Source of the DNA: Merismopedia glauca CCAP 1448/3
GTDB lineage: Bacteria > Cyanobacteriota > Cyanobacteriia > Cyanobacteriales > CCAP-1448
Assembly: GCF_003003775.1 (NCBI RefSeq)
Contig: NZ_PVWJ01000047.1
Coordinates: 1 to 37,506, forward strand
Direction: 5' to 3'
DNA length: 37,506 nt
Numbering within the stretch: the stretch's first letter is position 1; each line of letters begins with the position of its first letter. A model generated the notes under the pieces. That model did not search any database, was not told the origin of the DNA, and saw only the letters and a program-made list of their open reading frames with translations. This document shows, piece by piece, positions 68 through 35,636 of the stretch. The position numbers were made by a program, and so were the translations under genes.

Positions 68-133
68 AGTTCGCTAGTGAACTACCCTACCCTGTTGGTT
101 CGTGCTACGCACTCACTACCGAGGGTGGGGCTT
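68..133 (-). ncRNA. Candidate right-end / guide-RNA region of the tnpB element
   Basis: This stretch covers the last codons and the 3' flank of tnpB. It contains an inverted repeat AGTTC-6 nt-GAACT (68-83) and a second pairing CCCTACCCT (85-93) with AGGGTGGGG (about 124-132). In this family the guide RNA is made from this position. The exact RNA ends and the guide sequence cannot be fixed, because the right boundary of the element is not defined by a second copy. Confidence 0.3.
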
Positions 134-1304
134 CCGACTTCAAGGGCGACAGCCTCACAGATGTCTTTCGACCCCTGCTTGGTCTTACGTTGCCTCCACC
201 GGCAGTCGCGCTAGTTCCTAACGCGAGAAGTCTAAGACCCTCAGCCTTTAGGTTCTGTGCCGCATTGACATCTCTGTCGTGGTGCTTTCCACAACTAGAG
301 CAAGTCCAATGACGCACATCCAAAGGCAAAGAGGAGACTCGGTGATAACAATTACTACAGGTCTTCGATGAAGGAAAAAATCTCTCCACCTTGACCAATA
401 TTTTGCCAGAACGCTCACACTTATAGTTCAGCATTCCAACGAAACTAGACCAGCCACAATCGCTTATCGCTTTTGCTAAACAATGATTTTTTACCATGTT
501 CTTGACTGCTAGATCTTCCACAACGATGACTTGGTTTTCGTTCACCAGTTTATGGGAGAGTTTGTGCAAAAAGTCTTGTCTCGAATTACTTATTTTCTGA
601 TGGACTTTAGCAACTAATTTTCTAGCTCTATTGCGACTATTAGAGCCTTTTACTTTTCTAGATAGTTTGCGTTGTTTACGCTTGAGGTTTTGCTCATGCT
701 TCTTGATATGCCGAGGATTGGGATACTTAGAGCCAGTGCTAGTAATAGCAAAGTCAGTGATACCCAAATCGATACCAATCGCATTGCCCTCACTGCTAGG
801 GGTGGGATATTCGCCTTCTTGCTGGGTAAGAATAGCCGCAAAATATTGACCACTAGGATTCTTGGAGATAGTAACAGTTTTGACTTCACCGTCAAGGGGG
901 CGATGCAAGTTGATTTTGATCCATCCCAATTTAGGAAGATAAATCAAGTTATCAACAAACTTAGTCCCTTGAGGATACTGGAGAGACTGCTTTCCGTGCT
1001 TCGATTTGAAGTTAGGAAACTTAGTTCTTTTCTCAAAAAAGTTGATAAACGATTTGCTCAAATTCAGGGTGACAGATTGCAGAACTTGAGAATGACATTC
1101 ACCCAGCCAAGGAAACTCTTTCTTGAGTGCTGGCAGCAGTGCATTGAGTCCTTCTCTAGACAATCCCTTCCCTGTCTCGGCATAGGTAGTAGTAGTCTCG
1201 TTCAGAGCGCGATTCCACCACCAACGGGCGCAACCGAAAAACTGAGAGAGCTTTTCGGCTTGTGCGTCGGAGGGATAGATTCGAGCTTTGACAGACTGAT
1301 ACAT
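105..1304 (-). CDS. tnpB: IS605-family OrfB / TnpB, RNA-guided nuclease-type protein
   Basis: 399 residues, a normal TnpB length. The fold runs from an N-terminal helical/OrfB part to a RuvC-like nuclease with an inserted zinc ribbon. RuvC acidic residues are visible: D179 in GIDLGITDFA, E263 in VVEDLAVKNM and D343/D345 in HHDRDVNAAQN. The zinc ribbon has C316xxC319 and C335xxC338. All key residues are present, so the protein looks functional. TnpB proteins of this family are known to cut DNA using a guide RNA made from the right end of the element, overlapping the 3' end of the gene. No tnpA transposase is next to it, so this is a solitary tnpB element that would need a transposase in trans. 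The ATG lacks an obvious Shine-Dalgarno sequence and has a hairpin directly upstream (1311-1335). Confidence 0.93.
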   Translation of the reverse strand: MYQSVKARIYPSDAQAEKLSQFFGCARWWWNRALNETTTTYAETGKGLSREGLNALLPALKKEFPWLGECHSQVLQSVTLNLSKSFINFFEKRTKFPNFKSKHGKQSLQYPQGTKFVDNLIYLPKLGWIKINLHRPLDGEVKTVTISKNPSGQYFAAILTQQEGEYPTPSSEGNAIGIDLGITDFAITSTGSKYPNPRHIKKHEQNLKRKQRKLSRKVKGSNSRNRARKLVAKVHQKISNSRQDFLHKLSHKLVNENQVIVVEDLAVKNMVKNHCLAKAISDCGWSSFVGMLNYKCERSGKILVKVERFFPSSKTCSNCYHRVSSLPLDVRHWTCSSCGKHHDRDVNAAQNLKAEGLRLLALGTSATAGGGNVRPSRGRKTSVRLSPLKSEAPPSVVSA

Positions 1305-7342: not shown

Positions 7343-7545
7343 CTCATACCAATTCACCTTGAAGACGCTACAAATTTTGGGTAGGGGCGCAACGCGTTGC
7401 GCCCCTACTTCAGTGGACTTGAGCTATGAGCCGTGAACTTGAGTTCACGGCGGAGCAAGGCTTTCACGTTAAGTTGACACCAATGAATCCTTTGCGCCCC
7501 TACAGAGAATTCATGCGTAGTGATTATTTAGTGAATTGGTATAAG
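7343..7545 (-). mobile_element. Repeat element, family 2, copy A (uninterrupted)
   Basis: About 200 bp bounded by a perfect 12-bp inverted repeat, ATACCAATTCAC (7346-7357) and GTGAATTGGTAT (7531-7542). Inside are a 28-bp perfect palindrome (7381-7408) and a hairpin CCGTGAACT/AGTTCACGG (7431-7450). Read on the minus strand, it aligns from its end inward with 26541-26772, including the ATGAATTCTCTG segment that in the other copy is split by a second element. It contains no coding frame. Confidence 0.75.
7381..7408. repeat. 28-bp perfect palindrome
   Basis: The half-site GTAGGGGCGCAACG is followed by its exact complement without a loop. The outer part GTAGGGGCGCAA also occurs at 26678-26689 and, inverted, at 26909-26920. 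Confidence 0.9.
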
Positions 7546-15876: not shown

Positions 15877-18696
15877 ATGAATTTGAGATTTATCTTATTC
15901 CCTAAGTGGCTCAGACGAAGGTGGTCAGTCGCAACATTTTCATTATGCCTCATCCTCGTCTTGTTACTAGGTGGCGGTAATTCGGTTTTGTTCGCTTTTG
16001 CTGACGAAAGTCGGATTTCCAATAGTGTTGAATCAGTTTCCTTAACTAAAAACGCCCGTAGAACACGTTTAGCTAACGGTTTGACGATTCTGACTAAAGA
16101 AGTACACACCGCACCTATCGTCACCGTTCAGGTATGGTACAAAGTTGGCTCTCGCAACGAAGCGCCAGGAGTCAATGGGATTGCACACCAACTAGAGCAT
16201 ATGCTCTTTAAAGGCACCAAAGATCGTCCCATTCAATTTGGAAGGTTATTTAGCGCCTTGGGTAGCGATTCCAATGCTTTTACCAGTTACGATATGACAG
16301 CTTACTTTGGCACTGTAGAGCGGAACAAACTCAAAGCCTTGATGGAAATAGAAGCAGATCGCATGAAAAATTCGGTAATTGACGACAAAAAGCTAGAAAG
16401 CGAAAAAAGAGTCGTTATTTCTGAGTTACAAGGCTATGAAAATGGTCCTGGATATCGCCTCAGTCGTGCAGTTAAACGTGATGCTTTCCCAAATCATCCC
16501 TATGGCTTGACTGTGGGGGGAACTAAAGCCGATGTAGAGAAGTTTACTCCAGAGCAGGTTAAATCTTATTACAACAGGTTTTATAGTCCAGATAACGCCA
16601 CCTTAGTTATTGTCGGAGATTTTGAGACGGAAGCGACTTTAAAGGCTGCAAAAGATATTTTTGGCAAAATTCCCAAACATCAAAGCTCAACTTCCGAAAA
16701 GCTAGGAAATACAATACCTAAGCTAGAAACTACCATCAAACCCCCACTAGAAGGGAAAGTTAAACCACCTATTGTTTTAAAAGAACCAGGAAGTGCAGCT
16801 TTACTAGAGGCTGTATATCCTGCACCTGATGTTAATAACCCTGATGTTCCAGCTTTAGATGTCATGAACTATATTCTGACTGAAGGGCGCAATTCTAGGT
16901 TATATGAACCCCTAATCGAGTCAGGATTAGCTAGTGGCATTGACGGTGGGGTAGCCAACCTAATTTCTGGTGGTTGGGCGGAATTTTCAGCTACAGCTAC
17001 TCCTGGGAAGAAATTACCCGATATCGATGGCGCTATCTTACAAACCATCGAAACTTTGCAAACCAAAGGGGTGACTTTAGAAGAAGTCAACCGCGCTAAA
17101 GCTCAGCTAACAGCCAGTGCGATTTTAGGCAATAGAGATATTAACAGTCAAGCTCAGCAGTTGGGTAACGACCAAACTGTAACTGGAGATTATCAGTTTA
17201 CCGATAAGTATTTAGCTGGAGTGCAAAAAGTTACACCTGCTGATGTAAAGCGAGTGGCTAATAAGTATCTCAAACCGAGTCTACGCACTGTAGGATACTT
17301 TGAACCCACTCAAATTTCGGGAAAACCAGGCTCTCAAGCCACTAATTCAAGTCAAACTTCAGAAAGCTTTAATGCAGGACCACCTGTAGATCCGGCGGAA
17401 GTAGCTAAATACTTACCAAAAATCGATTCAGAGACTGTTTCCTCTACTCAGTCTTTACCGCAAACTTTTGAACTCAAAAATGGGTTAAAGGTATTACTGC
17501 TCAAAGATACTAGCACTCCCACAGTCAGTTTGAGCGGTTATATCCAAGCTGGAACCGAATTTGATGCGGCTGAAAAATCCGGTTTAGCATCTCTAACGGC
17601 AGATAATTTAACTAATGGCACCAAAACCAGAGATGCATTAACTATTGCTAAAATTCTAGCTGATCGCGGCGCGCAACTTGGTGCTAGTGCTAACCGAGAA
17701 GGTGTCAGTATTGGGGGTAGAGCTTTAGCTAGAGATTTACCGATTCTAGTTGATGTATTAGCCGATCTAACTCAAAATGCCATCTTTCCGACTCAAGAAT
17801 TAGAATTAAGTCGCCAAAGAGCGTTAACCTCTTTAAAACTAGAGCTAGATAATCCAGGTCGTGTAGGGCGGCGTACCTTTCAACAGCAAGTTTATCCCAA
17901 AAATCATCCCTTCTATAATTTCCCCACAGAAGCGAGTTTAAAAGCCATTAGTCGCGAAGATTTGGTCAACTTCTACCAACAGCACTATGCACCAAATAAT
18001 ATGACCTTGGCTATAGCTGGTGATTTTAGTCCCAAACAAGTGCGATCGCTGCTGGAATCCAAATTTGGTAGTTGGAAAAAGACGACTCAAACTAGTTCTA
18101 GCACACTACCAGAGGTAAAACTCCCAGCTAAAACCGTTCGATTGAACCCAACTTTACCAGGTAAAACCCAATCCATCTCAATTTTAGGTTACCAGGGCAT
18201 CTCCCGCCGCGATCCTCAGTTCTACCCAGCCTTAGTCATGAACGATATGTTAGGGGGAAGTACCTTATCGAGTAGATTAGGATCGGAAATCCGCGATCGC
18301 CTTGGCTTAACCTACGGGATCTACAGCGTCTTTGCAACTGGTAGATATCCAGGACCATTTTTTATTCAAATGCAAACTGCTCCAGAAGACGCTCAAAAAG
18401 CCGTTGATAGCACCATTAATGTCCTCAAGCAAATTCGATCTCAAGGGTTTAGCGTCGAGGAAATTAACGCTGCTAAATCATCTTTAGCTAGTAGCTACAA
18501 CGTTGAAATTGCCGATCCCGATGCTTTAATTAGTACAATTTTGTCCAATCAAGTTTATGGACTTAGTAAAGAGGAAATTAGAGACTTTAGCCGCAAAATC
18601 CAAGAGGTAACTCCAGAACAAGTCAACCAAGCTACTAAGGATTTATTACATCCAGACAACTTGGTGATTGTCACAGTTGGACCACCATTGTCATAA
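15877..18696 (+). CDS. M16 (pitrilysin-type) zinc protease, two-domain
   Basis: 939 residues with an N-terminal membrane/signal segment (about 17-42), so probably exported. The first M16 half has the inverted zinc motif H104-Q-L-E107-H108, with the third ligand in SEKRVVISELQ (E183, 75 residues later). The second half (from about 525, QTFELKNGLKVLLLKD) has the same fold, but GLASLTADNL replaces the zinc motif, so it is non-catalytic. This active/inactive fusion is a known arrangement. A Thr/Ser-rich linker joins the halves (about 475-500). A substrate role in peptide degradation or outer-envelope quality control is inferred from the family only. Confidence 0.9.
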   Translation: MNLRFILFPKWLRRRWSVATFSLCLILVLLLGGGNSVLFAFADESRISNSVESVSLTKNARRTRLANGLTILTKEVHTAPIVTVQVWYKVGSRNEAPGVNGIAHQLEHMLFKGTKDRPIQFGRLFSALGSDSNAFTSYDMTAYFGTVERNKLKALMEIEADRMKNSVIDDKKLESEKRVVISELQGYENGPGYRLSRAVKRDAFPNHPYGLTVGGTKADVEKFTPEQVKSYYNRFYSPDNATLVIVGDFETEATLKAAKDIFGKIPKHQSSTSEKLGNTIPKLETTIKPPLEGKVKPPIVLKEPGSAALLEAVYPAPDVNNPDVPALDVMNYILTEGRNSRLYEPLIESGLASGIDGGVANLISGGWAEFSATATPGKKLPDIDGAILQTIETLQTKGVTLEEVNRAKAQLTASAILGNRDINSQAQQLGNDQTVTGDYQFTDKYLAGVQKVTPADVKRVANKYLKPSLRTVGYFEPTQISGKPGSQATNSSQTSESFNAGPPVDPAEVAKYLPKIDSETVSSTQSLPQTFELKNGLKVLLLKDTSTPTVSLSGYIQAGTEFDAAEKSGLASLTADNLTNGTKTRDALTIAKILADRGAQLGASANREGVSIGGRALARDLPILVDVLADLTQNAIFPTQELELSRQRALTSLKLELDNPGRVGRRTFQQQVYPKNHPFYNFPTEASLKAISREDLVNFYQQHYAPNNMTLAIAGDFSPKQVRSLLESKFGSWKKTTQTSSSTLPEVKLPAKTVRLNPTLPGKTQSISILGYQGISRRDPQFYPALVMNDMLGGSTLSSRLGSEIRDRLGLTYGIYSVFATGRYPGPFFIQMQTAPEDAQKAVDSTINVLKQIRSQGFSVEEINAAKSSLASSYNVEIADPDALISTILSNQVYGLSKEEIRDFSRKIQEVTPEQVNQATKDLLHPDNLVIVTVGPPLS

Positions 18697-18717: not shown

Positions 18718-18740
18718 TAGGGTAGGCACTGCCTACCCTA
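18718..18740. repeat. Dispersed TAGGGTAGGC hairpin
   Basis: TAGGGTAGGC, loop ACT, GCCTACCCTA: a perfect 10-bp stem between the convergent M16 and narM genes, where it may end transcription from either side. The same stem forms the core of the miniature element at 26577-26667. Confidence 0.8.
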
Positions 18741-18745
18741 ACCTT

Positions 18746-19198
18746 TCATAAAAGATGAAATTCCTTTGCTGCTGGTAAAAAGTTTCGATTTTCGTGGCTG
18801 GAACGACTCAATTTAATTAAAGCAAAACGTTCTACAGGTAAAAGATTTCTCCACTTTTCTACAGTTACCTCTAAATTAGATTCTTGAGCTTTAGCAATCA
18901 CACTTTCGGGAACCATATCTTCATTCATCCAAGAAGGGTTTTCCTCAATTGGTAAATCTTTTGGTTCTGCTCCACTTCTAGCTAACACTATCTGTTTCAA
19001 ATATTGCCGATAAGCGTTGATTTCTGTAAGTGTCGTACAGGGTAATTCTACTAGGGATTGCCTTTCTTCTGCTTGTAAATGATGCCAATCTGGTAATTTT
19101 AATTTGACTCCACAAGTATCTAATTTGAGGCGTACTTGCATGGGAATACAACGAAGGGAATCAACAAAGTCGGCTTCAAACTGGAAAAAATCAGACAT
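18746..19198 (-). CDS. narM: Nitrate reductase-associated protein NarM
   Basis: 150 residues starting FFQFEADFVDSLRCIPMQVRLKLDTCGVKLKLPDW, the signature of the cyanobacterial nitrate-reductase-associated family. NarM is needed for active nitrate reductase in cyanobacteria, probably for maturation of the enzyme. It is soluble with no signal peptide. Here it lies alone, not next to nir, nrt or nar genes. The identification rests on remembered family sequence. Confidence 0.78.
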   Translation of the reverse strand: MSDFFQFEADFVDSLRCIPMQVRLKLDTCGVKLKLPDWHHLQAEERQSLVELPCTTLTEINAYRQYLKQIVLARSGAEPKDLPIEENPSWMNEDMVPESVIAKAQESNLEVTVEKWRNLLPVERFALIKLSRSSHENRNFLPAAKEFHLL

Positions 19199-25372: not shown

Positions 25373-25837
25373 CTTCTGCTTGAGACACAGTAACAGTTAA
25401 TTTTAGTCTGCGTAGGCAGACTTTGTTTGTATAGCTGCGATTTAAATCGCCGAGACAATGAATTCTCTCCTTAAGGCGATCGCTCTCTATCCAGTTTTAT
25501 GGCAACATCAAAAGCACACATATAGGAAAAACAAAAAATGCCACCATCCAACCACCTCTCTACTCGTTGAATTTACCTCCCCTTGTGAAATAGTTTGGTT
25601 ACAGTGCATAAGTCCTATAATTGTAGGTATGAGATTGAAAGCAATTGGGTTGATGGTAGCGGTTGGTCAAAGAATATCTGCAACGTAGGAATTGTTTATA
25701 TTTTCTCAATTTGACGATTTTTCCGATTCCAGGTCACCAAATGAGGTAAATAATTTGGGCATTGGGAATTGGGAAACTTCCATATCAGCCCTTAACCTTC
25801 ATAAATCATTTTAAAATACTTGAAAGAGAGAAAAGTT
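25373..25837. other. Spacer with hairpin repeat, no convincing gene
   Basis: About 465 bp. At 25405-25422 there is a hairpin AGTCTGC-GTAG-GCAGACT, followed by GCGATTTAAATCGC, another palindrome. A frame at 25458-25688 (76 codons, rich in His and Cys) has no family resemblance or ribosome site and is not called. A degenerate ATTGGG-type array lies at about 25756-25776. Confidence 0.5.
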
Positions 25838-26067: not shown

Positions 26068-26508
26068 TTAAAGTCTCCCTAGGTTACTAATTTTCAGGAG
26101 AGCATCATTCACCGTCTCAGGTAACTGACGCATAATCTTACCTTTTTCCCGGTCTACAGGGACTAAAGTAACAGTGGCGGTAACATATGTTTGCTCTCCA
26201 TCTGGAGACTCAATTCGATATTTCCAGCAAATACGAGGCTTAATTGCTTCTGTCATGCGAGTTTTGACTAAAGCCTGCATTCCCATTTTGAGTGAATAAT
26301 GGTAGCGCACGCTGAGTTCTACTACTGGTAACTCGCACCCCGCAGCGACTAATTCGGCATAGTTCATACCGACAGCGCGCAAACACTCTACTCTAGCTTC
26401 TTCCATCCATGCGATATAACTGCCGTGCCAAGCTATCCCACCGTAATCTGTATGATGGGGATGAACGGTAATAGGATAGATAAACCAGCGATCGGTAGAG
26501 TTATTCAT
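26068..26508 (-). CDS. Hotdog-fold acyl-CoA thioesterase (YbgC/4HBT type)
   Basis: 146 residues. The 4-hydroxybenzoyl-CoA thioesterase-type signature is HHTDYGGIAWHGSYIAWMEEAR, with D21 as the likely catalytic acid, H28 and E36/E37 nearby. It is expected to hydrolyse an acyl-CoA. The homologous cyanobacterial enzyme in phylloquinone synthesis acts on 1,4-dihydroxy-2-naphthoyl-CoA, and that role is possible but unproven here. The gene is monocistronic; its stop lies 11 bp from the convergent small gene. Confidence 0.82.
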   Translation of the reverse strand: MNNSTDRWFIYPITVHPHHTDYGGIAWHGSYIAWMEEARVECLRAVGMNYAELVAAGCELPVVELSVRYHYSLKMGMQALVKTRMTEAIKPRICWKYRIESPDGEQTYVTATVTLVPVDREKGKIMRQLPETVNDALLKISNLGRL

Positions 26509-26571
26509 AGAGTTGATGGAATTAAGGAAGAAAAGTTATCTTATACCAAATCACTAAATACTTGCTACGTA

Positions 26572-26672
26572 TGAATCAGGACTTACGCAAATTGCCAAAT
26601 TCTACACTATATGTAGAGTAGGGTAGGCATTGCCTACCCTAGCTATGGTGTCTCTGCGTAAGTCCTGTGAAT
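26572..26672 (+). mobile_element. 91-bp miniature element nested in copy B, with 5-bp target duplication
   Basis: The element is 26577-26667 with perfect 13-bp ends CAGGACTTACGCA and TGCGTAAGTCCTG. The direct repeat TGAAT flanks it at 26572-26576 and 26668-26672. Copy A of the host repeat (near 7508-7514, minus strand) has a single ATGAATTCTCTG at this point, which is the empty site. The core holds the hairpin TAGGGTAGGC/GCCTACCCTA (26619-26641). Confidence 0.88.
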
Positions 26673-26730
26673 TCTCTGTAGGGGCGCAAAGCTTTCACTA
26701 GCGTCAACTTAACGTGAAACCTTTACCCCA

Positions 26731-26844
26731 CCGTGAACTCAAGTTCACGGCTCATAGCCCAAGTCCACTGAAGTGGACTGAAAATAGTTCTTAGAGTCCT
26801 CTTTAGAGGACTTTAGCTATAAGCCAGGGGTTGAAAACCCCTGG
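26731..26844. repeat. Cluster of four hairpins
   Basis: Perfect stems in series: CCGTGAACT/AGTTCACGG (26731-26750), AGTCCACT/AGTGGACT (26762-26779), AGTCCTCT/AGAGGACT (26795-26812) and CCAGGGGTT/AACCCCTGG (26824-26844), with loops of 2-3 nt. They stand between the 35-bp inverted arms and may form a cruciform or structured RNA. Confidence 0.8.
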
Positions 26845-27030
26845 CGGTTGTTCCCTAAACCCAGCGTACAGGAAGCGTTTGAGCCTTAAATTGACATCAA
26901 TGAAAGCTTTGCGCCCCTACAGGAGGAATTTGAGTCCACGTATTAATCGGTTATACCCAGAAGATTGGGGGCGATCGCCGATCTAACCTATCCCCTTTTC
27001 TTTTATACAATGTCCATATTACAGATTTAA

Positions 27031-27057
27031 AGATCGAGGCTAAAAAACCGTCGATCT
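27031..27057 (+). promoter_or_regulatory. Hairpin in the clpB leader, behind a putative -10 box
   Basis: AGATCGA (27031-27037) pairs with TCGATCT (27051-27057), with GG/CC continuing the stem around an A-rich loop. It lies about 40 nt before the clpB ATG. TATACAAT at 27004-27011 could serve as a -10 box. No CIRCE repeat is visible. A role in heat or stress control is inference. Confidence 0.4.
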
Positions 27058-27096
27058 GGAAACTTTATAGCAAAAACATACAGGGAGTATCCAAGG

Positions 27097-29715
27097 ATGC
27101 AACCAACTAATCCCAATCAATTTACCGAAAAAGCGTGGGATGCGATCGCTCGCACTCCAGATCTAGCTAAGGCAGCTAATCAGCAGCAAATCGAAACTGA
27201 ACACCTGATGAAAGCCCTATTGGAATCAGAAGGGCTGGCTAGTAGTATTTTAACCAAAAGTGGCGCAGATGTCGTCAAAATCAGGGATCGGGCTGAACAA
27301 TTCATTGCCAATAAACCGAAAGTTTCTGGAGATGGAACTTCTGTATACTTAGGACGCAGTTTAGATACATTACTAGATCGGGCTGACGGTTACCGCAAAG
27401 AATTTGACGACCAATATATTTCTATTGAACATTTATTACTCGGATACGCCAAAGATGACAGATTTGGGAAATCCTTATTTACAGAATTTAAGTTGGACGA
27501 AAACAAGCTTAAAGAGACGATTAAACAGGTAAGAGGGGCGCAAAAGGTGACAGATCAAAACCCAGAAGGAAAATATGAATCTTTAGAAAAATACGGTCGT
27601 GACCTGACAGAAGCGGCTCGTCAAGGTAAGCTAGATCCCGTAATTGGTCGAGATGACGAGATTCGCCGCACGATTCAAATCTTGTCTCGCAGAACCAAAA
27701 ATAATCCCGTATTAATTGGGGAACCAGGGGTAGGAAAAACCGCTATAGCTGAAGGTTTAGCCCAAAGAATCCTGAGTGGAGATGTTCCTCAATCCTTGAA
27801 GGATCGGAAATTAATTGCCCTAGATATGGGTTCTTTGATTGCTGGTGCGAAATATCGGGGTGAGTTTGAAGAACGTCTCAAAGCCGTATTGAAGGAAGTT
27901 ACGGATTCTCAAGGCAAAATCATCCTCTTTATTGATGAAATTCATACCGTAGTTGGTGCGGGTGCTACTCAAGGAGCGATGGATGCAGGTAACCTCCTCA
28001 AACCCATGTTGGCGCGGGGAGAATTGCGCTGTATTGGGGCAACAACTCTAGATGAGTATCGCAAGTATATTGAGAAGGATGCGGCGTTAGAAAGGCGTTT
28101 TCAGCAGGTATATGTCGATCAGCCGAATATAGAAGATACCATCTCCATTCTGCGGGGACTCAAGGAACGCTATGAGGTTCACCACGGGGTACGAATTGCT
28201 GATAATGCATTAGTCGCAGCAGCTACTTTATCTAGTCGGTACATTAGCGATCGCTTTTTACCCGATAAGGCGATTGACTTGGTAGATGAAGCTGCGGCTC
28301 GTCTGAAGATGGAAATTACTTCTAAACCCGAAGAGCTAGACGAAATTGACCGTAAAGTTCTGCAATTGGAAATGGAGCGACTTTCTTTGCAGAAAGAGAG
28401 CGATCTGGGTTCTAAGGAACGCCTAAATCGCTTAGAAAAAGAACTGGCTGACTTGAAGGAAGAACAACGCACCTTCAATACTCAATGGGAATCTGAAAAA
28501 GGTGTTATTAATCAGATTCAAACCATTAAAGAAGAGATTGACAAGGTTAATACCGAAGTAGGGCAAGCAGAACGAGATTACGACCTCAATCGCGCGGCTG
28601 AATTGAAATATGGCAAGTTAACTGACTTACACAGACAGCTTGAAGAAGCAGAAGTCAAACTCTCTCAATCTCAAAAGAGTGGTAAATCCTTGCTGCGAGA
28701 AGAAGTAACGGAAGGAGATATAGCGGAAGTTATTTCTAAATGGACTGGAATTCCCATTGTTAAGTTAGTAGCTTCAGAAATTGACAAACTGCTACATCTT
28801 GAAGACGAACTCCATAGACGAGTCATCGGACAAGATGAAGCTGTGGAAGCCGTTAGTAGTGCCATTCAGCGATCGCGCGCAGGTTTAGCCGATCCCAATC
28901 GTCCTACTGCTAGTTTTATCTTCTTAGGTCCTACTGGCGTTGGTAAAACCGAACTTGCTAAGGCTTTAGCCGCCTTCCTCTTCGATACTGAAGAAGCAAT
29001 GGTACGGATCGATATGTCGGAATATATGGAGAAACACGCCGTTTCTCGTCTCATTGGCGCACCCCCAGGATATGTAGGCTATGAAGAGGGCGGACAACTC
29101 ACCGAAGCCGTTCGCCGTCGTCCTTACGCCGTTATTCTGTTTGATGAGATTGAAAAGGCGCACCCAGACGTATTTAACGTCATGCTGCAAATCTTAGATG
29201 ATGGAAGGGTGACGGATGCTCAAGGAAGAACTGTTGATTTTAAAAATGCAGTCATTATTATGACTAGTAACATCGGTTCTCAGTTCATTTTAGATATCGC
29301 TGGAGATGACTCCCGTTATGAAGAGATGCGAACTAGGGTGATGGAAGCGATGCGTACCAGTTTCCGTCCCGAATTCCTGAACCGAATTGATGAAATTATC
29401 ATCTTCCACGGGTTACAAAAATCTGAACTGCGGAGAATCGTGCAGATTCAGGTGGGAAGATTGGGACAAAGATTGAGCGATCGCAAGATATCCCTCAAGC
29501 TTAGTGAAGTAGCTTTAGATTTCCTCGCCGAGGTGGGTTACGATCCTGTTTACGGCGCGCGTCCTTTAAAACGCGCAATTCAACGGGAATTAGAAACCCA
29601 AATTGCTAAAGCGATTCTCCGAGGTGAGTTTAATTCGGGAGATACGATCTTTGTAGATGTGGAAAATGAACGTTTGGCTTTCAAGCGTTTACCAGCAGAT
29701 TTGATTACTGCTTAA
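27097..29715 (+). CDS. clpB: ATP-dependent disaggregase ClpB
   Basis: 872 residues, full length. ClpB is a hexameric AAA+ chaperone that pulls proteins out of aggregates with DnaK. Domain order: Clp N-domain (1-150), AAA1 with Walker A GEPGVGKT (208-215), a coiled-coil middle domain (about 405-525, with [18 protein letters not shown]), AAA2 with Walker A GPTGVGKT (611-618), and the C-terminal region ([15 protein letters not shown]). It lacks the ClpP-binding loop expected of ClpA or ClpC. The start [17 protein letters not shown] matches cyanobacterial ClpB1. GGGAG stands about 11 nt before the ATG. Confidence 0.96.
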
Positions 29716-30739: not shown

Positions 30740-32169
30740 TCAATAAATTTGACAGAATTTATCAGATCTTTAGCAGTATTTAAAAAGTTATTGTAGTGGC
30801 TAAATTCAGCCCTATAAGTTAAATAATATGCTTGGTTTCCCCGTAAAGTTACTACTAAAAGATATCTCACCTTAATCCCTTCTTCTTCACCTTGATAACA
30901 AATAGCTTGAGTTTTTCCGCCACCTAAACTCAAATCTGTTTCACAAGTTGGTAAAAGCTGAAACTTGTCTAAATTCTGGTTAATTCTAGATGTTAAATCG
31001 TGGCTATATTCATCTAATAAAATGGGATTTTTCAGAGTTTCTACATTAATAATTACTTGTTCATTAAAAGTATCTTTCGAGCTTTCTTGAGGCGATTCTA
31101 AAATATCAACATCTGGAGTCGAAGGATAAGCACCAGGCTGAAGTTTCCAATTTTTCGGATACTTGAGAGAAATTTTGGGATTAAGATCGGGAACTGACCA
31201 AGTATATTCATTCAGTTCTACCTTGGGTTTAGGGTTGAGGAAAATGCTGAAAATAGTGCCTAATAATAAGAAGGCGATCGCCCCTCCCAAAAATACTAAA
31301 TCAAATTTATTGAGCCATATTTTGGGTTTAGTTAAAGTTGATATTTCCTCCAAAGCTTCTACCGCAGAATGATAACGTTGATCGGGATCGTAGCGCACCA
31401 TTTTCGATAAAATCTGGGCTAACTTAGGACTGACTTTAGCATTTTGCTGCCAAATAATTTCCTGATTATTAGGATCTCTAGGGAGTTTTGCCACCGAAAT
31501 TCCAGTTAAAGCTTGAATCGCAGTTATTCCCACTGCATAAATATCGCTACTAGCTTGAGGATAGCCCATCGCTTGTTCATCAGGCATATATCCAATCGTC
31601 CCGACGGGGACTTTATCTGTATCTAGTAAAGTTTCACTGGCTAAACCTTGAATCTGTTTCACCGCACCAAAATCAATTAAAAATAACTTGCCATCCGATC
31701 TTCTTCTGATTAAATTAGAAGGTTTAATATCACGGTGAATAATTTTTTGTTGATGGACAAATGCTAATACTTCGAGGATTTCTTGCAAAAGTTGGATTAC
31801 TTCTGATTGGGTTAGACTTTTTCGGAAAGCCAACTCAGTTTTACTGAGATCTTCGCCATCAATATATTCTTGCACTAAATAGAATTCCCCATTTTCCATA
31901 AAATCAGCTAGTAATCTAGGAATTTGAGGATGTTGTAAGTGATATAAAACTTCAGCTTCTGTTTGAAATAATCTGGTAGTGACAATTACTAATTGCGGGT
32001 TAGACAAGTTGACTTTGAGGCGTTTAACTACACACAAAGGTTTACTTCTAATATCTTCATCTTGAGCCAGATAAGTTTCTGCAAACTCACCTCCTCCTAA
32101 ATAAGAAGTAATCCGGTAGCGTCCTCTAAGTATTTTGCCGATCATGGCATTTTGGGTAGAGGTTAACAT
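30736..32169 (-). CDS. Receptor-type Ser/Thr protein kinase with extracytoplasmic domain
   Basis: 477 residues from the ATG at 32169 (AGGTG 8 nt upstream). The Hanks-type kinase domain has the glycine loop LGGGEFAETYL, K49 in VVKRLK, H145-R-D-I-K-P-S-N and D166-F-G; APE is replaced by PDEQ (197-199). One membrane segment spans about 289-311. The C-terminal 165 residues lie outside and begin YTWSVPDLNPKISLKYPKNW, reminiscent of PsbP-like domains; this likeness is inference. The frame is open to 32328, but that extension would overlap the next gene and translate a repeat remnant. The signal sensed is unknown. Confidence 0.87.
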   Translation of the reverse strand: MLTSTQNAMIGKILRGRYRITSYLGGGEFAETYLAQDEDIRSKPLCVVKRLKVNLSNPQLVIVTTRLFQTEAEVLYHLQHPQIPRLLADFMENGEFYLVQEYIDGEDLSKTELAFRKSLTQSEVIQLLQEILEVLAFVHQQKIIHRDIKPSNLIRRRSDGKLFLIDFGAVKQIQGLASETLLDTDKVPVGTIGYMPDEQAMGYPQASSDIYAVGITAIQALTGISVAKLPRDPNNQEIIWQQNAKVSPKLAQILSKMVRYDPDQRYHSAVEALEEISTLTKPKIWLNKFDLVFLGGAIAFLLLGTIFSIFLNPKPKVELNEYTWSVPDLNPKISLKYPKNWKLQPGAYPSTPDVDILESPQESSKDTFNEQVIINVETLKNPILLDEYSHDLTSRINQNLDKFQLLPTCETDLSLGGGKTQAICYQGEEEGIKVRYLLVVTLRGNQAYYLTYRAEFSHYNNFLNTAKDLINSVKFIE

Positions 32170-32250
32170 TAATTCTACACCTGACGCAGGGGCTGAGCAG
32201 AAAGTTGCGCCTGTGCCTCTTTCGTCTTTGGTGACATAATTTTGCCACAG

Positions 32251-32262
32251 TGCGTAAGTCCT
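32251..32262. repeat. Single end of the 91-bp miniature family
   Basis: TGCGTAAGTCCT matches 12 bases of the inverted-repeat end at 26655-26666. It lies in the 95-bp gap between the debranching-enzyme stop and the chosen kinase start. A very degenerate partner may sit at about 32178-32190. Confidence 0.5.
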
Positions 32263-32264
32263 AA

Positions 32265-34241
32265 TTAATTCTCTGTCGCTACCCAAGCCCGCAAAACTTC
32301 GGCTACTGTCCAAGCTTGAGCAATGCACCCCCTTGGGTTCAGGGGCGGATCGCCGTCAAAAATCTCGCTGAGGGTGCCTAAACCAGCAGCAGATAGGTGA
32401 TTTGCCATTGGTGTGAGGAATTGCCGTGCTTGTTGGGGATTCTGGTAAACTCGCAGATGTGCCAAGACAAACGATCCTAATAACCAACCCCAGACAGTAC
32501 CTTGATGATAGGCTCCATCGCGCTGATACTGGTTTCCGCCATAGGTTCCCTGGTATTGTGGACTATCGGGGCTGAGCGATCGCAAGCCGTGAGAAGTTAG
32601 TAGCACCCTTCCACAAGTATCTACAACCCCTTTTTGTTGCGCTGGTGTCAGGGGACTTTCGGGTAAAGATACAGCAAAAATCTGGTTTGGGCGCAGGGAT
32701 GGATCGTCACCATCAGGACCATCTAGGACATCATAGCAATAGCCTAAATCCTGATTCCAGAAGCGAGAAAATCTGATGTGGGCGCGTTCGGCGATCGCTT
32801 CATACTCTTGATAGGGTTTCGCCAACTGACGGGCAAATTTTGCCATCGTTCGCAAAGCATTATACCATAGAGCATTGACTTCCACTGGCTTGCCAATTCG
32901 AGGGGTAACTACCCAATCCCCCACTTTAGCATCCATCCAAGTAAGTTGCACCCCAGGTTCTCCAGCGTAGAGCAAGCCATCAGCAGGATCGAGGTGGATT
33001 TGGTAGCGAGTACCCAGGCAATGCCAGTTAATGATGTCTGCTAGTACCGGAAACAGTTCATGCAATAGCTCGTCATCTTCTGTTTGGCTGTAGTAAGCGC
33101 GGACAGCTTCAAAGTACCACAGGGTAGCATCAACCGTATTATATTCTGGAGCTTCACCCCGATCTGGAAAGCGATTGGGTAACATTCCTCGATCTACATA
33201 CCTAGCAAATGTAATCAGGATCGATCTGGCGATTTCTGGTCTTCCAGTGCTTAAGGTCAGTCCTGGTAGGCTAATCATCGTATCTCGTCCCCAGTCACCA
33301 AACCAGTGATAACCAGCAATAATCGTTTTGCCTTGGGGTTCTTCTGGTACAGATCGGTCTACAATAAACTGGTCAGCAGCTAGAACCAACTGATTTACCC
33401 AAGCTGGATTGAGTGCATTTCCAGATTTCCAAAGTCCAATTAACTTCTGCTGTCGATCGCAGTTGTGTTTCAGAGCAGTTTCACCATTCAAGTCTACTTG
33501 CTTTTCGGTGCTAGCCACAAACGCGATCGCTTCGGTAGGATTCAGGGTAGCTGTGAAGGTAGCAGCGTGGAGGTGATCTTCTTTGTCACTTAGTCCTCGG
33601 TACTGTTCTACAGCTAATTCAAATCTATAGTACCAATTGTGATTCAATGAGACATCGCCTCTATCGGCACACAAATATAGGGGTACAGCACCAGGATAGG
33701 CGGTTACGCAAACCCCTTGAGGTACACTGTCAATGGACATTCGCCAGCTATCAGCTTGGGTACTACCATGATCTTCGCGGTAGTTTACCATTGCTTTAAC
33801 CTTCAGCTTCAGGGGTTGAGTGCCACGACGCAAGGTATATTGAACATAAGTAGTATTTGCTCCTTGCTGCATCCACACCCGTTTTTCTAACAGGGCATCA
33901 GCCATAGCAAAACGCCAGACAGGGATAGTCCCTTCCAGAGCAAAACTCTCTAGGTATTGGTAGCCTTCAGGACTGATGATACCATCTGCCCAACGGTTAG
34001 TATGAAGAGGATAGCAGCGATCGCCATCGCCATATTGTGCTGTTTCATCTAGCTTTGTCAACAGCAAAGTCCGCCCTAAAGGTGGTTCTAAAGCTGCCAT
34101 TAGTAAGCCATGATAGCGACGAGTTAGCACCCCTGCGACAGTTCCAGAGGCATAACCACCAATGCCATTGGTGACTAACCATTCCTTCGATTCAGCTAGA
34201 TCCAGTCTGCCACAAATTTCCCGCCCAAATTCCAGAGACAT
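32265..34241 (-). CDS. Amylo-alpha-1,6-glucosidase (glycogen-debranching type)
   Basis: About 658 residues with the two-part architecture of this family: an N-terminal beta-rich domain (GGYASGTVAGVLTRRYHGLLM) and a C-terminal (alpha/alpha)6 catalytic domain. Key blocks are YHWFGDWGRDTMISLPGL (around 315-325), RGEAPEYNTVDATLWYFEAV (around 365) and YQRDGAYHQGTVWGW (around 575-590); the acidic residues expected to be catalytic are in the first two. It removes branch glucose from glycogen or similar glucans. A GGAGG site precedes tandem ATGs at 34244 and 34241; the second has the better spacing. No other glycogen gene is near. Confidence 0.88.
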   Translation of the reverse strand: MSLEFGREICGRLDLAESKEWLVTNGIGGYASGTVAGVLTRRYHGLLMAALEPPLGRTLLLTKLDETAQYGDGDRCYPLHTNRWADGIISPEGYQYLESFALEGTIPVWRFAMADALLEKRVWMQQGANTTYVQYTLRRGTQPLKLKVKAMVNYREDHGSTQADSWRMSIDSVPQGVCVTAYPGAVPLYLCADRGDVSLNHNWYYRFELAVEQYRGLSDKEDHLHAATFTATLNPTEAIAFVASTEKQVDLNGETALKHNCDRQQKLIGLWKSGNALNPAWVNQLVLAADQFIVDRSVPEEPQGKTIIAGYHWFGDWGRDTMISLPGLTLSTGRPEIARSILITFARYVDRGMLPNRFPDRGEAPEYNTVDATLWYFEAVRAYYSQTEDDELLHELFPVLADIINWHCLGTRYQIHLDPADGLLYAGEPGVQLTWMDAKVGDWVVTPRIGKPVEVNALWYNALRTMAKFARQLAKPYQEYEAIAERAHIRFSRFWNQDLGYCYDVLDGPDGDDPSLRPNQIFAVSLPESPLTPAQQKGVVDTCGRVLLTSHGLRSLSPDSPQYQGTYGGNQYQRDGAYHQGTVWGWLLGSFVLAHLRVYQNPQQARQFLTPMANHLSAAGLGTLSEIFDGDPPLNPRGCIAQAWTVAEVLRAWVATEN

Positions 34242-34344
34242 CATCAACCTCCGAGGTCAAGAGATCGAAATCTTGCACATTACCTAGCGATCGCTATTAT
34301 AGTTAGGGTCGATGCCCATATTACTATGGGACACCTCCCCTTCA

Positions 34345-34378
34345 GAACGTAGCGTGCAACTTTCACCGCACTACGCTC
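34345..34378 (-). ncRNA. Group II intron domain V
   Basis: A 34-nt hairpin on the minus strand, from GAGCGTAGTGCGG through a GAAA tetraloop to CACGCTACGTTC. Length, GAAA loop and closing GAG...TTC match the conserved catalytic domain V. The stop codon of the intron protein (34371-34373) lies inside it. Confidence 0.85.
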
Positions 34379-35636
34379 CTAGTTTGACATCTACTAAATC
34401 GGGATTAACCCGTTTTTCGGACTCACATCTTCTACCATGATTGGTTTGATGTAGATGACATTCGCGGTGCAGAACTTCCAGATTATTGGCTTTCCAATTG
34501 GCATGGTTGCCATCTTTATGGTGTAATTCTGCAATGTCACCCGAATAGAACATTAGACCGCAGTGGGCACACCTGTGATTCTGTTTCTTCAGGACTTTAG
34601 CCGTTATACCGTCGTAATTAGCATTTTCTCTCTTTGACCAGTAAGCTAAATCGCCATCGAACGGGGATTTTGTACCCGTGACGTTGACAAACCTGCACGC
34701 CGCCCATTTTACAGATGGAAATGCTTTCTTTAAAACCCTATTGGTTTGGTATCGGTCGTATCTCCCTTGTTTGCGAATGAACTTCCACGTCCAGTAGTTT
34801 AAACTCCATAGGTCGTGTTGACTCATATCGCAGAATCGATGGTAATTTCTCCAACCTCTTATCACCGCGCCACATTTATCGATGCGTTCTTCGAGGGTGA
34901 ATCGACTATCCTTCATCACTTCTTTCACTTTTGTCTTAATTCCTTTCACGGATTTCTGACTTGGTGTAGAGATGAATTTACCATTGGGTTTAACACAGAA
35001 ATTCCACCCAAGATAATCGAACCCATCAGTGCTTTTAATCACTTTGGTTTTAGCTTCTTTTACTTTTAACCCTCTTGTCGCCAAGAATTGGTCAATGCGT
35101 TCTCTAAGGATGTTTTCGTCGTCTTCAGGATTGAGGATGTACACAACGTCATCCGCGTAACGGAATCCTTTTAGTGCATCTAGATAAGTGCCCCCGTTTT
35201 TAACTTTGTATCTCAATTCATATTCCACATTTTCTAGTCCATGAAGAACTATATTTGCGAGTAATGGGCTGATTACTCCGCCTTGAGGGGTTCCTGTTTC
35301 TGAGGACGGGAATTCTCCTCGGACTCCGGCTTTAATTGCTCGAAAAAGTCCTTGTTTGGCTGCTCTGGGAAGTTGGACAGATTGCATTAGGAATTTGTGG
35401 TCAATCTTGTCAAAACACTTTTCAATATCGAGTTCGAGGATTCTTTTGTGTATACCCTTAGCGTTAGCTTTGAGTTGATTAAAGATTCCTTGCTGGACAT
35501 CGTGGCAGCTTCTTCCTGGTCTGAACCCATAAGAATGGGCGTTGAATTCGGCTTCGGCTGCTGGTTCCAGAGCATATTTGAGAAGGCATTGATAAGCTCT
35601 ATCGCTGATGGTGGGAACGCTACAAGCAGACTGCAC
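34371..35636 (-). CDS. ltrA: Group II intron reverse transcriptase/maturase, N-terminally truncated
   Basis: 421 residues. Homology begins at VPTISDRAYQCLLKYALEP and continues with SYGFRPGRSCHDV, LELDIEKCFDKIDH, GTPQGGVISPLLANI and the catalytic FRYADDVV. The maturase domain (GWRNYHRFCD, LNYWTWKFIRK) and an HNH endonuclease (CAHCGLMF, AELHHKDGNHANWKANNLEVLHRECH) follow. The layout is that of chloroplast-like group II introns. Roughly 100-180 N-terminal residues, including the first reverse-transcriptase blocks, are missing. A stop codon stands just upstream in this frame and the apparent start is GTG. Probably not functional as an intron. Confidence 0.88.
   Translation of the reverse strand: MQSACSVPTISDRAYQCLLKYALEPAAEAEFNAHSYGFRPGRSCHDVQQGIFNQLKANAKGIHKRILELDIEKCFDKIDHKFLMQSVQLPRAAKQGLFRAIKAGVRGEFPSSETGTPQGGVISPLLANIVLHGLENVEYELRYKVKNGGTYLDALKGFRYADDVVYILNPEDDENILRERIDQFLATRGLKVKEAKTKVIKSTDGFDYLGWNFCVKPNGKFISTPSQKSVKGIKTKVKEVMKDSRFTLEERIDKCGAVIRGWRNYHRFCDMSQHDLWSLNYWTWKFIRKQGRYDRYQTNRVLKKAFPSVKWAACRFVNVTGTKSPFDGDLAYWSKRENANYDGITAKVLKKQNHRCAHCGLMFYSGDIAELHHKDGNHANWKANNLEVLHRECHLHQTNHGRRCESEKRVNPDLVDVKLGA

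What the first reader, a model, noticed from the sequence alone, without database searches (positions are those of the whole stretch)
26572..26672. Nested miniature element with its empty site preserved in the same window
The 91-bp element at 26577-26667 has perfect 13-bp inverted ends and a TGAAT duplication. Its host repeat also exists, inverted, at 7343-7545, and there the site reads ATGAATTCTCTG without the insert. This shows the order of events (host repeat first, small element second) and defines ends and target size without any database. A lone end at 32251-32262 suggests more copies.
Basis: seen in the sequence. Interest (0 to 1): 0.72.

Follow-up and report, generated by a model that had tools for sequence, protein, structure and literature searches.

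The report
Small jumping element inside another repeat
A 91-base non-coding jumping element with matching ends has landed inside an older repeat, probably in a cyanobacterium; its ends, its target duplication and its probable helper transposon were all found, so it is a clear but ordinary case of a known kind of mobile DNA.

Summary
Window 26577-26667 is a 91-bp element with perfect 13-bp inverted ends (CAGGACTTACGCA), flanked by TGAAT on both sides. The uninterrupted site with one TGAAT is at 7509-7513 (inverted). Three more host-repeat copies in the genome carry it, two of them letter for letter around the site. The element is a MITE. The same genome holds one 1181-bp IS with identical ends, a 5-bp duplication (CTGCC) and an open 335-aa IS701-family transposase gene. 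A Planktothrix copy annotated as ISPlag1 family has the same ends and a 5-bp duplication. Of 85 distinct two-ended elements from eleven genomes, 61 have an exact 5-bp duplication, against about 1 when partners are shuffled. Four element types with different interiors share these ends in this genome, and 40 of 100 related genomes (own included) hold such pairs. The palindrome at the element's centre also occurs alone in the genome, and many copies are one-ended. This is a new member of a known kind; the independent palindromic core is the least explained part.

The parts
26577..26667 (+). 91-bp non-autonomous element (MITE), 91-bp type of the CAGGACTTACGCA group
   Evidence: perfect 13-bp inverted ends; one of 11 full-length copies, itself included, among 68 own-genome loci compared
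26577..26589 (+). left 13-bp terminal inverted repeat CAGGACTTACGCA
   Evidence: exact match; identical to both ends of the IS in L009 and of the ISPlag1-family copy in L228
26655..26667 (-). right 13-bp terminal inverted repeat
   Evidence: exact match
26572..26576 (+). target-site duplication TGAAT, left copy
   Evidence: single in host copies without the insert
26668..26672 (+). target-site duplication TGAAT, right copy
26618..26641 (.). central palindrome GTAGGGTAGGCATTGCCTACCCTA, also found without the MITE elsewhere in the genome
   Evidence: positions 42-65 of the element
26544..26576 (+). left part of the host repeat, beginning with its end TACCAAATCAC
   Evidence: identical to L171 and L176
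26668..26774 (+). right part of the host repeat; no clean right end was found
   Evidence: 89.7% identical over this stretch to the inverted copy; end search found no good right end
7347..7541 (-). second copy of the host repeat, without the insert (195 bp, ends TACCAATTCAC / GTGAATTGGTA)
7509..7513 (-). uninterrupted target site with a single TGAAT

Best explanation
The 91-bp element is a MITE: a non-coding transposon that carries only the two ends recognised by the transposase of an ISPlag1-like insertion sequence of the IS701 family. The transposase, made from a full IS elsewhere in the genome (now or in the past), binds the two CAGGACTTACGCA ends, cuts the element out (DDE chemistry) and joins it to a target cut with a 5-base stagger; repair of the stagger gives the 5-bp duplication, here TGAAT. 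At this locus the target was an older repeat of another MITE-like family. Shown: ends, duplication, uninterrupted site, an IS with the same ends and duplication size, many copies with the same boundaries. Inferred: that this particular transposase moved this copy, the cut-and-paste chemistry, and when it happened.
For: Perfect 13-bp ends and TGAAT pair. Uninterrupted site in four host copies: window 7347-7541 and L150, L171, L176. Exact 5-bp duplications at 61 of 85 distinct two-ended elements (15 of 19 own, 46 of 66 from ten other genomes); shuffled-partner control mean 0.96, maximum 5 in 1000. Length 5 is specific: of the 69 non-own rows before duplicates were removed, the longest duplication is 5 in 49, 7 in 1, 4 in 4, and 0-2 in 15; of the 19 own, 5 in 15 and 0-1 in 4. 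One full IS in the genome: 1181 bp, the same perfect ends, CTGCC on both sides, 335-aa open frame, NCBIfam IS701 model NF049921 at 401 bits against a cut-off of 250, Pfam DDE_5 and DDE_Tnp_1. Planktothrix copy annotated as ISPlag1 family (L228): the same ends, duplication TTCAA, 1306 bp. Subterminal likeness read by eye: the IS ends continue GATACGCTATATGTAG and AGGACACTATATATAG; the element has ACACTATATGTAG inside its left end and GAGACACCATAGCTAG next to its right end.
Against: No transposition was observed. 24 of 85 two-ended elements lack an exact 5-bp duplication. Over the same 100 genomes, transposase and MITE presence are only weakly associated: both 12, transposase only 8, MITE only 28, neither 52; one-sided Fisher P 0.038, and 0.059 without the window's own genome (counts). 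Hence many MITE carriers have no detected close relative of this transposase. Of 17 distinct two-ended IS candidates (own included), 9 have no exact duplication; nor has the Nodularia copy. The other element types in the genome show no subterminal likeness to the IS by eye.
Confidence: 0.94

Rival explanations
1. The element is a fixed palindromic regulatory or structural repeat (for example an RNA hairpin) and the TGAAT pair is a chance feature of the host repeat.
For: The strand folds far better than its shuffles (DNA parameters, -26.5 kcal/mol, z -9.67); many copies are degenerate or one-ended.
Against: TGAAT is single in host copies without the insert; 5-bp duplications recur with different sequences at 61 of 85 elements; the same ends bound an open transposase gene. 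Strong folding is expected of any element with 13-bp inverted ends and a palindromic core.
Confidence: 0.03
2. The MITEs are moved by a transposase other than the ISPlag1-like one, for example a more distant IS701-type IS with similar ends.
For: MITE pairs occur in 28 of 100 genomes in which the transposase query found nothing at E up to 1e-30. L215 (34% identical transposase) has ends CAGGAGTTACGCA with duplication TCCTA, so the end group is wider than ISPlag1. Several element types have no subterminal likeness to the window genome's IS (by eye).
Against: In the window's own genome the one transposase gene found with this query is bounded by the identical 13-bp ends. More distant transposases were not searched for.
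Confidence: 0.15
3. The arrangement at 26544-26774 arose by recombination between repeats rather than by insertion.
For: The genome is rich in shared palindromes (34 places of the core at up to 1 mismatch) that could recombine.
Against: The two flanks fit together exactly into the uninterrupted site with one extra TGAAT at the element boundary; recombination gives no reason for a 5-bp duplication directly outside the ends.
Confidence: 0.02

Closest known systems
ISPlag1 (IS701 family, Planktothrix agardhii)
   Same: the copy annotated as ISPlag1 family in L228 has 13-bp ends CAGGACTTACGCA identical to the element's and a 5-bp duplication (TTCAA); its transposase is 69% identical to the one in the window's genome
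   Different: 1306 bp with a transposase gene; the element is 91 bp and codes for nothing
ISAba11 (placing it with IS701 is recalled)
   Same: 5-bp duplications TATAG and ATTTA are reported in PMC7885321 (passages seen); Acinetobacter plasmids hold relatives of the transposase at 47% identity, not shown here to be ISAba11
   Different: its end sequence was not examined here; other hosts
Cyanobacterial MITEs such as Nezha, and those of Anabaena sp. 90
   Same: small non-coding elements with inverted ends in cyanobacteria; 147 complete or partial MITEs of 77-541 bp in Anabaena sp. 90 (PMC3542288, passages)
   Different: that paper reports no evident likeness to the ends of the ISs of that genome ('type II'); here a full IS with identical ends exists. 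Nezha was seen only as a mention and in reference lists; its ends were not compared
GTAG-tagged REPs (PMC3733652) and very small mobile repeats (Elhai et al. 2008, seen only in a reference list)
   Same: the central palindrome is about 25 bp, occurs alone at many places and begins with GTAG
   Different: GTAG here pairs with CTAC inside the palindrome, whereas tagged REPs carry unpaired motifs at one end (passages)

Membership tests
MITE of an IS701-family (ISPlag1-like) IS | terminal inverted repeats shared with a full IS | tested here: met
   13 of 13 identical at both ends to the IS in L009 and to the ISPlag1-family copy in L228
MITE of an IS701-family (ISPlag1-like) IS | target-site duplication of the same length as the IS | tested here: met
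   TGAAT (5) against CTGCC and TTCAA (5)
MITE of an IS701-family (ISPlag1-like) IS | short, no coding capacity, several copies | tested here: met
   91 bp; 11 full-length copies, itself included, among 68 own-genome loci compared; no ORF of 100 aa or more overlaps it
MITE of an IS701-family (ISPlag1-like) IS | mobilised by that transposase | not testable with these tools
   needs an experiment
IS701 family (the full IS, C57) | transposase reaches a curated family cut-off | tested here: met
   NF049921 transpos_IS701_2, 401.4 bits, cut-off 250; the other IS701 models NF033540 and NF049999 stay below theirs (95 of 150; 49 of 170)
IS701 family (the full IS, C57) | 4-bp YTAA duplication of the founding member (recalled, from no call) | tested here: not met
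   5 bp here, as reported for ISAba11; it goes with a 5-bp group, not with the founding IS701
GTAG-tagged REP (central palindrome) | unpaired GTAG at one end of the stem | tested here: not met
   GTAG pairs with CTAC in GTAGGGTAGGCAWTGCCTACCCTAC (definition from passages)
IS1031-type (IS5 family) MITE (host repeat) | 3-bp TNA duplication (family trait recalled) | tested here: inconclusive
   equal 3-bp TNA flanks at 7 of 11 copies with both ends (L150, L159, L162, L171, L173, L175, L177; unequal at L148, L160, L172, L176) (rows, tally); no helper IS was sought by protein

The most novel reading that the evidence does not exclude
The locus is a three-layer nest: a TACCA-ended MITE, inside it an ISPlag1-type MITE, and inside that a 25-bp palindrome that is itself an independent mobile unit. 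MITEs of this end group in different genomes carry different GTAG-starting palindromes in their middle, as if such palindromes repeatedly enter MITEs and ride on them. The palindrome's edges would also be the points at which one-ended MITE copies are produced.
Probability: 0.3. Interest if true: 0.5.

Novelty: new member of a known kind. Interest (0 to 1): 0.3.

Why it matters
It gives a MITE group with defined ends, target size, uninterrupted sites and a probable helper, present in 40 of 100 sampled genomes of one order. Such a system is convenient for testing IS701-type transposition. The repeated presence of palindromes in the middle of these elements offers a testable route by which highly repeated palindromes may spread.

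Tried and rejected
A search for the host repeat as a clean pair (TATACCAAWTCACT, 60-90 bases, GTGAWTTGGTATA) found 0 places in the genome; the pattern demanded fixed bases outside the ends and was too strict. A DNA search for relatives of the lone end at 32251 found none but itself. The solved-structure search with the transposase found 0 matches at E up to 0.1. The terminator scan of 26400-27100 found none and one promoter-like site, fewer than the shuffle mean of 1.5.

Literature: a text search for GGACTTACGCA found one paper, unrelated by its listing; MITE with IS701 and cyanobacteri found two, neither about this element by title and abstract start; 'miniature inverted-repeat transposable element' with cyanobacteria found 43, of which 20 were listed and three had passages looked up; a search on nested MITEs with target site duplication found eight (listing only); ISPlag1 is in one held paper, whose main text does not contain 'mite' or 'miniature'. 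I found no print on a MITE with these ends in these searches, but most subscription papers and ISfinder are not held.

A palindromic target preference was looked for: TAAC...GTTA is favoured in composition around the duplication (at most 0.57 per position after symmetrising 61 sites), but only 1 of 61 sites carries all of TAAY-N5-RTTA, so it is a weak bias, and the TGAAT site of the window does not fit it.

Rows dropped before counts: L103 (contig edge) and L064 (own genome, held under other locus ids); three duplicate loci removed (88 to 85). L130 and L141, in two genomes, share both flanks and look like one inherited insertion; both are kept in the 85. In one search, of 38 loci examined, 17 distinct two-ended candidates remain after leaving out L221, L222, L223 and L226 (repeats of L205, L209, L207, L203) and a second chance pairing in L199. 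In one search a 981-bp pairing in L017 was left out as a chance pairing with a degenerate end. In one search the tool scored 40 of 68 first-look candidates.

Full report
What is there. The 91-bp element at 26577-26667 has perfect 13-bp inverted ends and is flanked by TGAAT on both sides. In the window only this pair matches the 13-mer exactly. The reverse complement of the inverted copy (7347-7541 by its own ends) reads through the same place with one TGAAT. Two more host copies, L171 (contig 36) and L176 (contig 33), match both flanks of the insert letter for letter around the site, and L150 has GCTACGTATGAATTCTCTG. So the site existed without the insert, and TGAAT was doubled on insertion. 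The window is probably cyanobacterial: GCGATCGC occurs at 40 places against 0.24 expected (that this marks many cyanobacteria is recalled), and the closest named transposases are cyanobacterial. The organism itself was not identified.

More copies. The 91-bp query gave 62 matching stretches in the 5.2-Mb genome (many are only the palindromic core, on both strands). AGGACTTACGCA at up to 1 mismatch occurs 78 times against 15 for the reversed control. In the 48 own-genome loci then in hand, a search for paired ends (up to 3 mismatches together) gave 19 two-ended elements. By interior, sorted by eye, these are: eight of the 91-bp type (L001-L006, L010 with a later insert, L024), four of a 103-bp type (L011, L012, L013, L015), one 93-bp (L014), five of an 84-94-bp type (L016 with a later insert, L017-L020) and one 1181-bp IS (L009). 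The interiors look unrelated between types; the ends are the same.

Target duplication. Fifteen of the 19 own elements and 46 of 66 distinct elements from ten other genomes have an exact 5-bp duplication directly outside the 13-bp ends; the shuffled-partner control gives a mean of 0.96 and at most 5 of 85. Of the four own elements without it, L015 and L016 differ by one base and L006 and L024 by more. By genome the other counts run from 16 of 20 (G090) and 9 of 11 (G073) to 11 of 19 (G003) and 0 of 1 (G084). In the scan of shifted registers no other register exceeds 10 of 69.

Helper. The 1181-bp element (contig 57) has the same perfect ends, CTGCC on both sides and one 335-aa open frame, the only place in the genome found with this protein. 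It passes the NCBIfam IS701 model NF049921 (401 against 250 bits) and Pfam DDE_5 and DDE_Tnp_1. Elsewhere, 7 of 16 further distinct two-ended IS candidates have exact 5-bp duplications, including Nostoc L050 (ATGAT). The best named match, annotated as ISPlag1 family in Planktothrix agardhii (69% identity), has ends CAGGACTTACGCA and duplication TTCAA in L228; a Paraburkholderia copy (L229) has TAGGACTTACGCA and ACCTC; a Nodularia copy (L230) has TAGGACTTACGCA ends but no duplication. [quoted passage not shown]

Spread. The strict pair pattern occurs in 40 of 100 genomes (window's own included), with 0 for the reversed control in each of the 100; counts run from 1 to about 195. The transposase query at E up to 1e-30 hits 20 of the same 100, many as fragments. 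Both together: 12; one-sided Fisher P 0.038, or 0.059 without the window's own genome. That is weak support and leaves room for other helpers or for stranded MITEs.

Order of events. At this locus the host repeat is older. The opposite order also occurs: L010 is a 91-bp-type element split by a repeat with TACCAATTC and TGGTA ends, and L016 is an 84-94-bp-type element split by a related repeat with a worn left end; L017-L020 show the latter's uninterrupted sequence (by eye). The two families were therefore mobile over overlapping times.

The core palindrome. GGGTAGGCAWTGCCTACCC occurs at 34 places at up to 1 mismatch. Of 68 own-genome loci compared with the 91-bp element, 46 matched: 11 full-length, 7 left-only (one of them the split L010), 10 right-only and 18 core-only (twelve of the core-only loci were fetched because of the palindrome, so these are not frequencies). 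Left-only copies stop at position 65, the palindrome's edge, in 3 of 7 (L007, L032, L034); right-only copies start at 33-38, just outside the other edge, in 5 of 10 (L008, L022, L027, L030, L033). Local alignment and the search itself favour pieces that keep the palindrome, so this clustering is not a clean statistic. In other genomes the middle of many such MITEs holds other palindromes that start with GTAG (by eye; not all do, for example most listed for G090). One of these kinds, GTAGGGTGCGTTAGCG...CGTAACGCACC, occurs in all four genomes searched: in G003, whose listed MITEs carry a different palindrome, and at four places of G073, none of them among the MITE places listed for it. The palindrome is thus probably a separate repeat that sits inside MITEs. 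How it got there is not shown. The genome has five places with a Y1 transposase domain; no link to the palindrome was tested.

Mechanism, shown and inferred. Shown: ends, duplication, uninterrupted site, an IS with the same ends and duplication size. Inferred: binding by the IS transposase, cut-and-paste, 5-base stagger, and that the present helper or a past one did it.

Verdict. A well-documented MITE of an ISPlag1-like IS701 element, nested in another MITE-like repeat.

Noticed in passing
window 32176-32263: The lone end TGCGTAAGTCCTA at 32251-32263 may close an old element: TACACCTGACGCA at 32176-32188 is 4 mismatches from a left end, and ATTAATTC flanks both sides (32168-32175 and 32264-32271), 8 bp rather than the usual 5 (read by eye). 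No relative in the genome.
   Followed up: partly
window 25605-25617: A further end-like site (TAGGACTTATGCA, 2 mismatches, minus strand) with no partner seen by eye.
   Followed up: no
window 18720-18738: The palindrome GGGTAGGCACTGCCTACCC stands between two convergent ORFs (15877-18696 + and 18746-19198 -), where it could serve as a terminator.
   Followed up: no
L008, L022, L027, L030, L033, L007, L032, L034: One-ended copies of the 91-bp element that stop at or just outside the edge of the central palindrome; cause unknown.
   Followed up: partly
L010 (545-737), L016 (491-728): Host-type repeats inserted inside CAGGACTTACGCA elements, the reverse of the nesting in the window.
   Followed up: partly
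window 26678-26920: The host repeat's own palindrome GTAGGGGCGCAAAGCTTT...AAAGCTTTGCGCCCCTAC is opened at its centre by about 215 bases that are absent from compact 100-bp copies such as L171; the host's right end in this copy was not found.
   Followed up: partly
window 34302-35636 (minus): Group II intron match (Rfam RF00029, 55.4 bits, 34302-34380) next to a 421-aa ORF that looks like its reverse transcriptase (read by eye).
   Followed up: no
window 105-1304 (minus): 399-aa ORF that looks like a TnpB of the IS200/IS605 group (read by eye; not searched).
   Followed up: no
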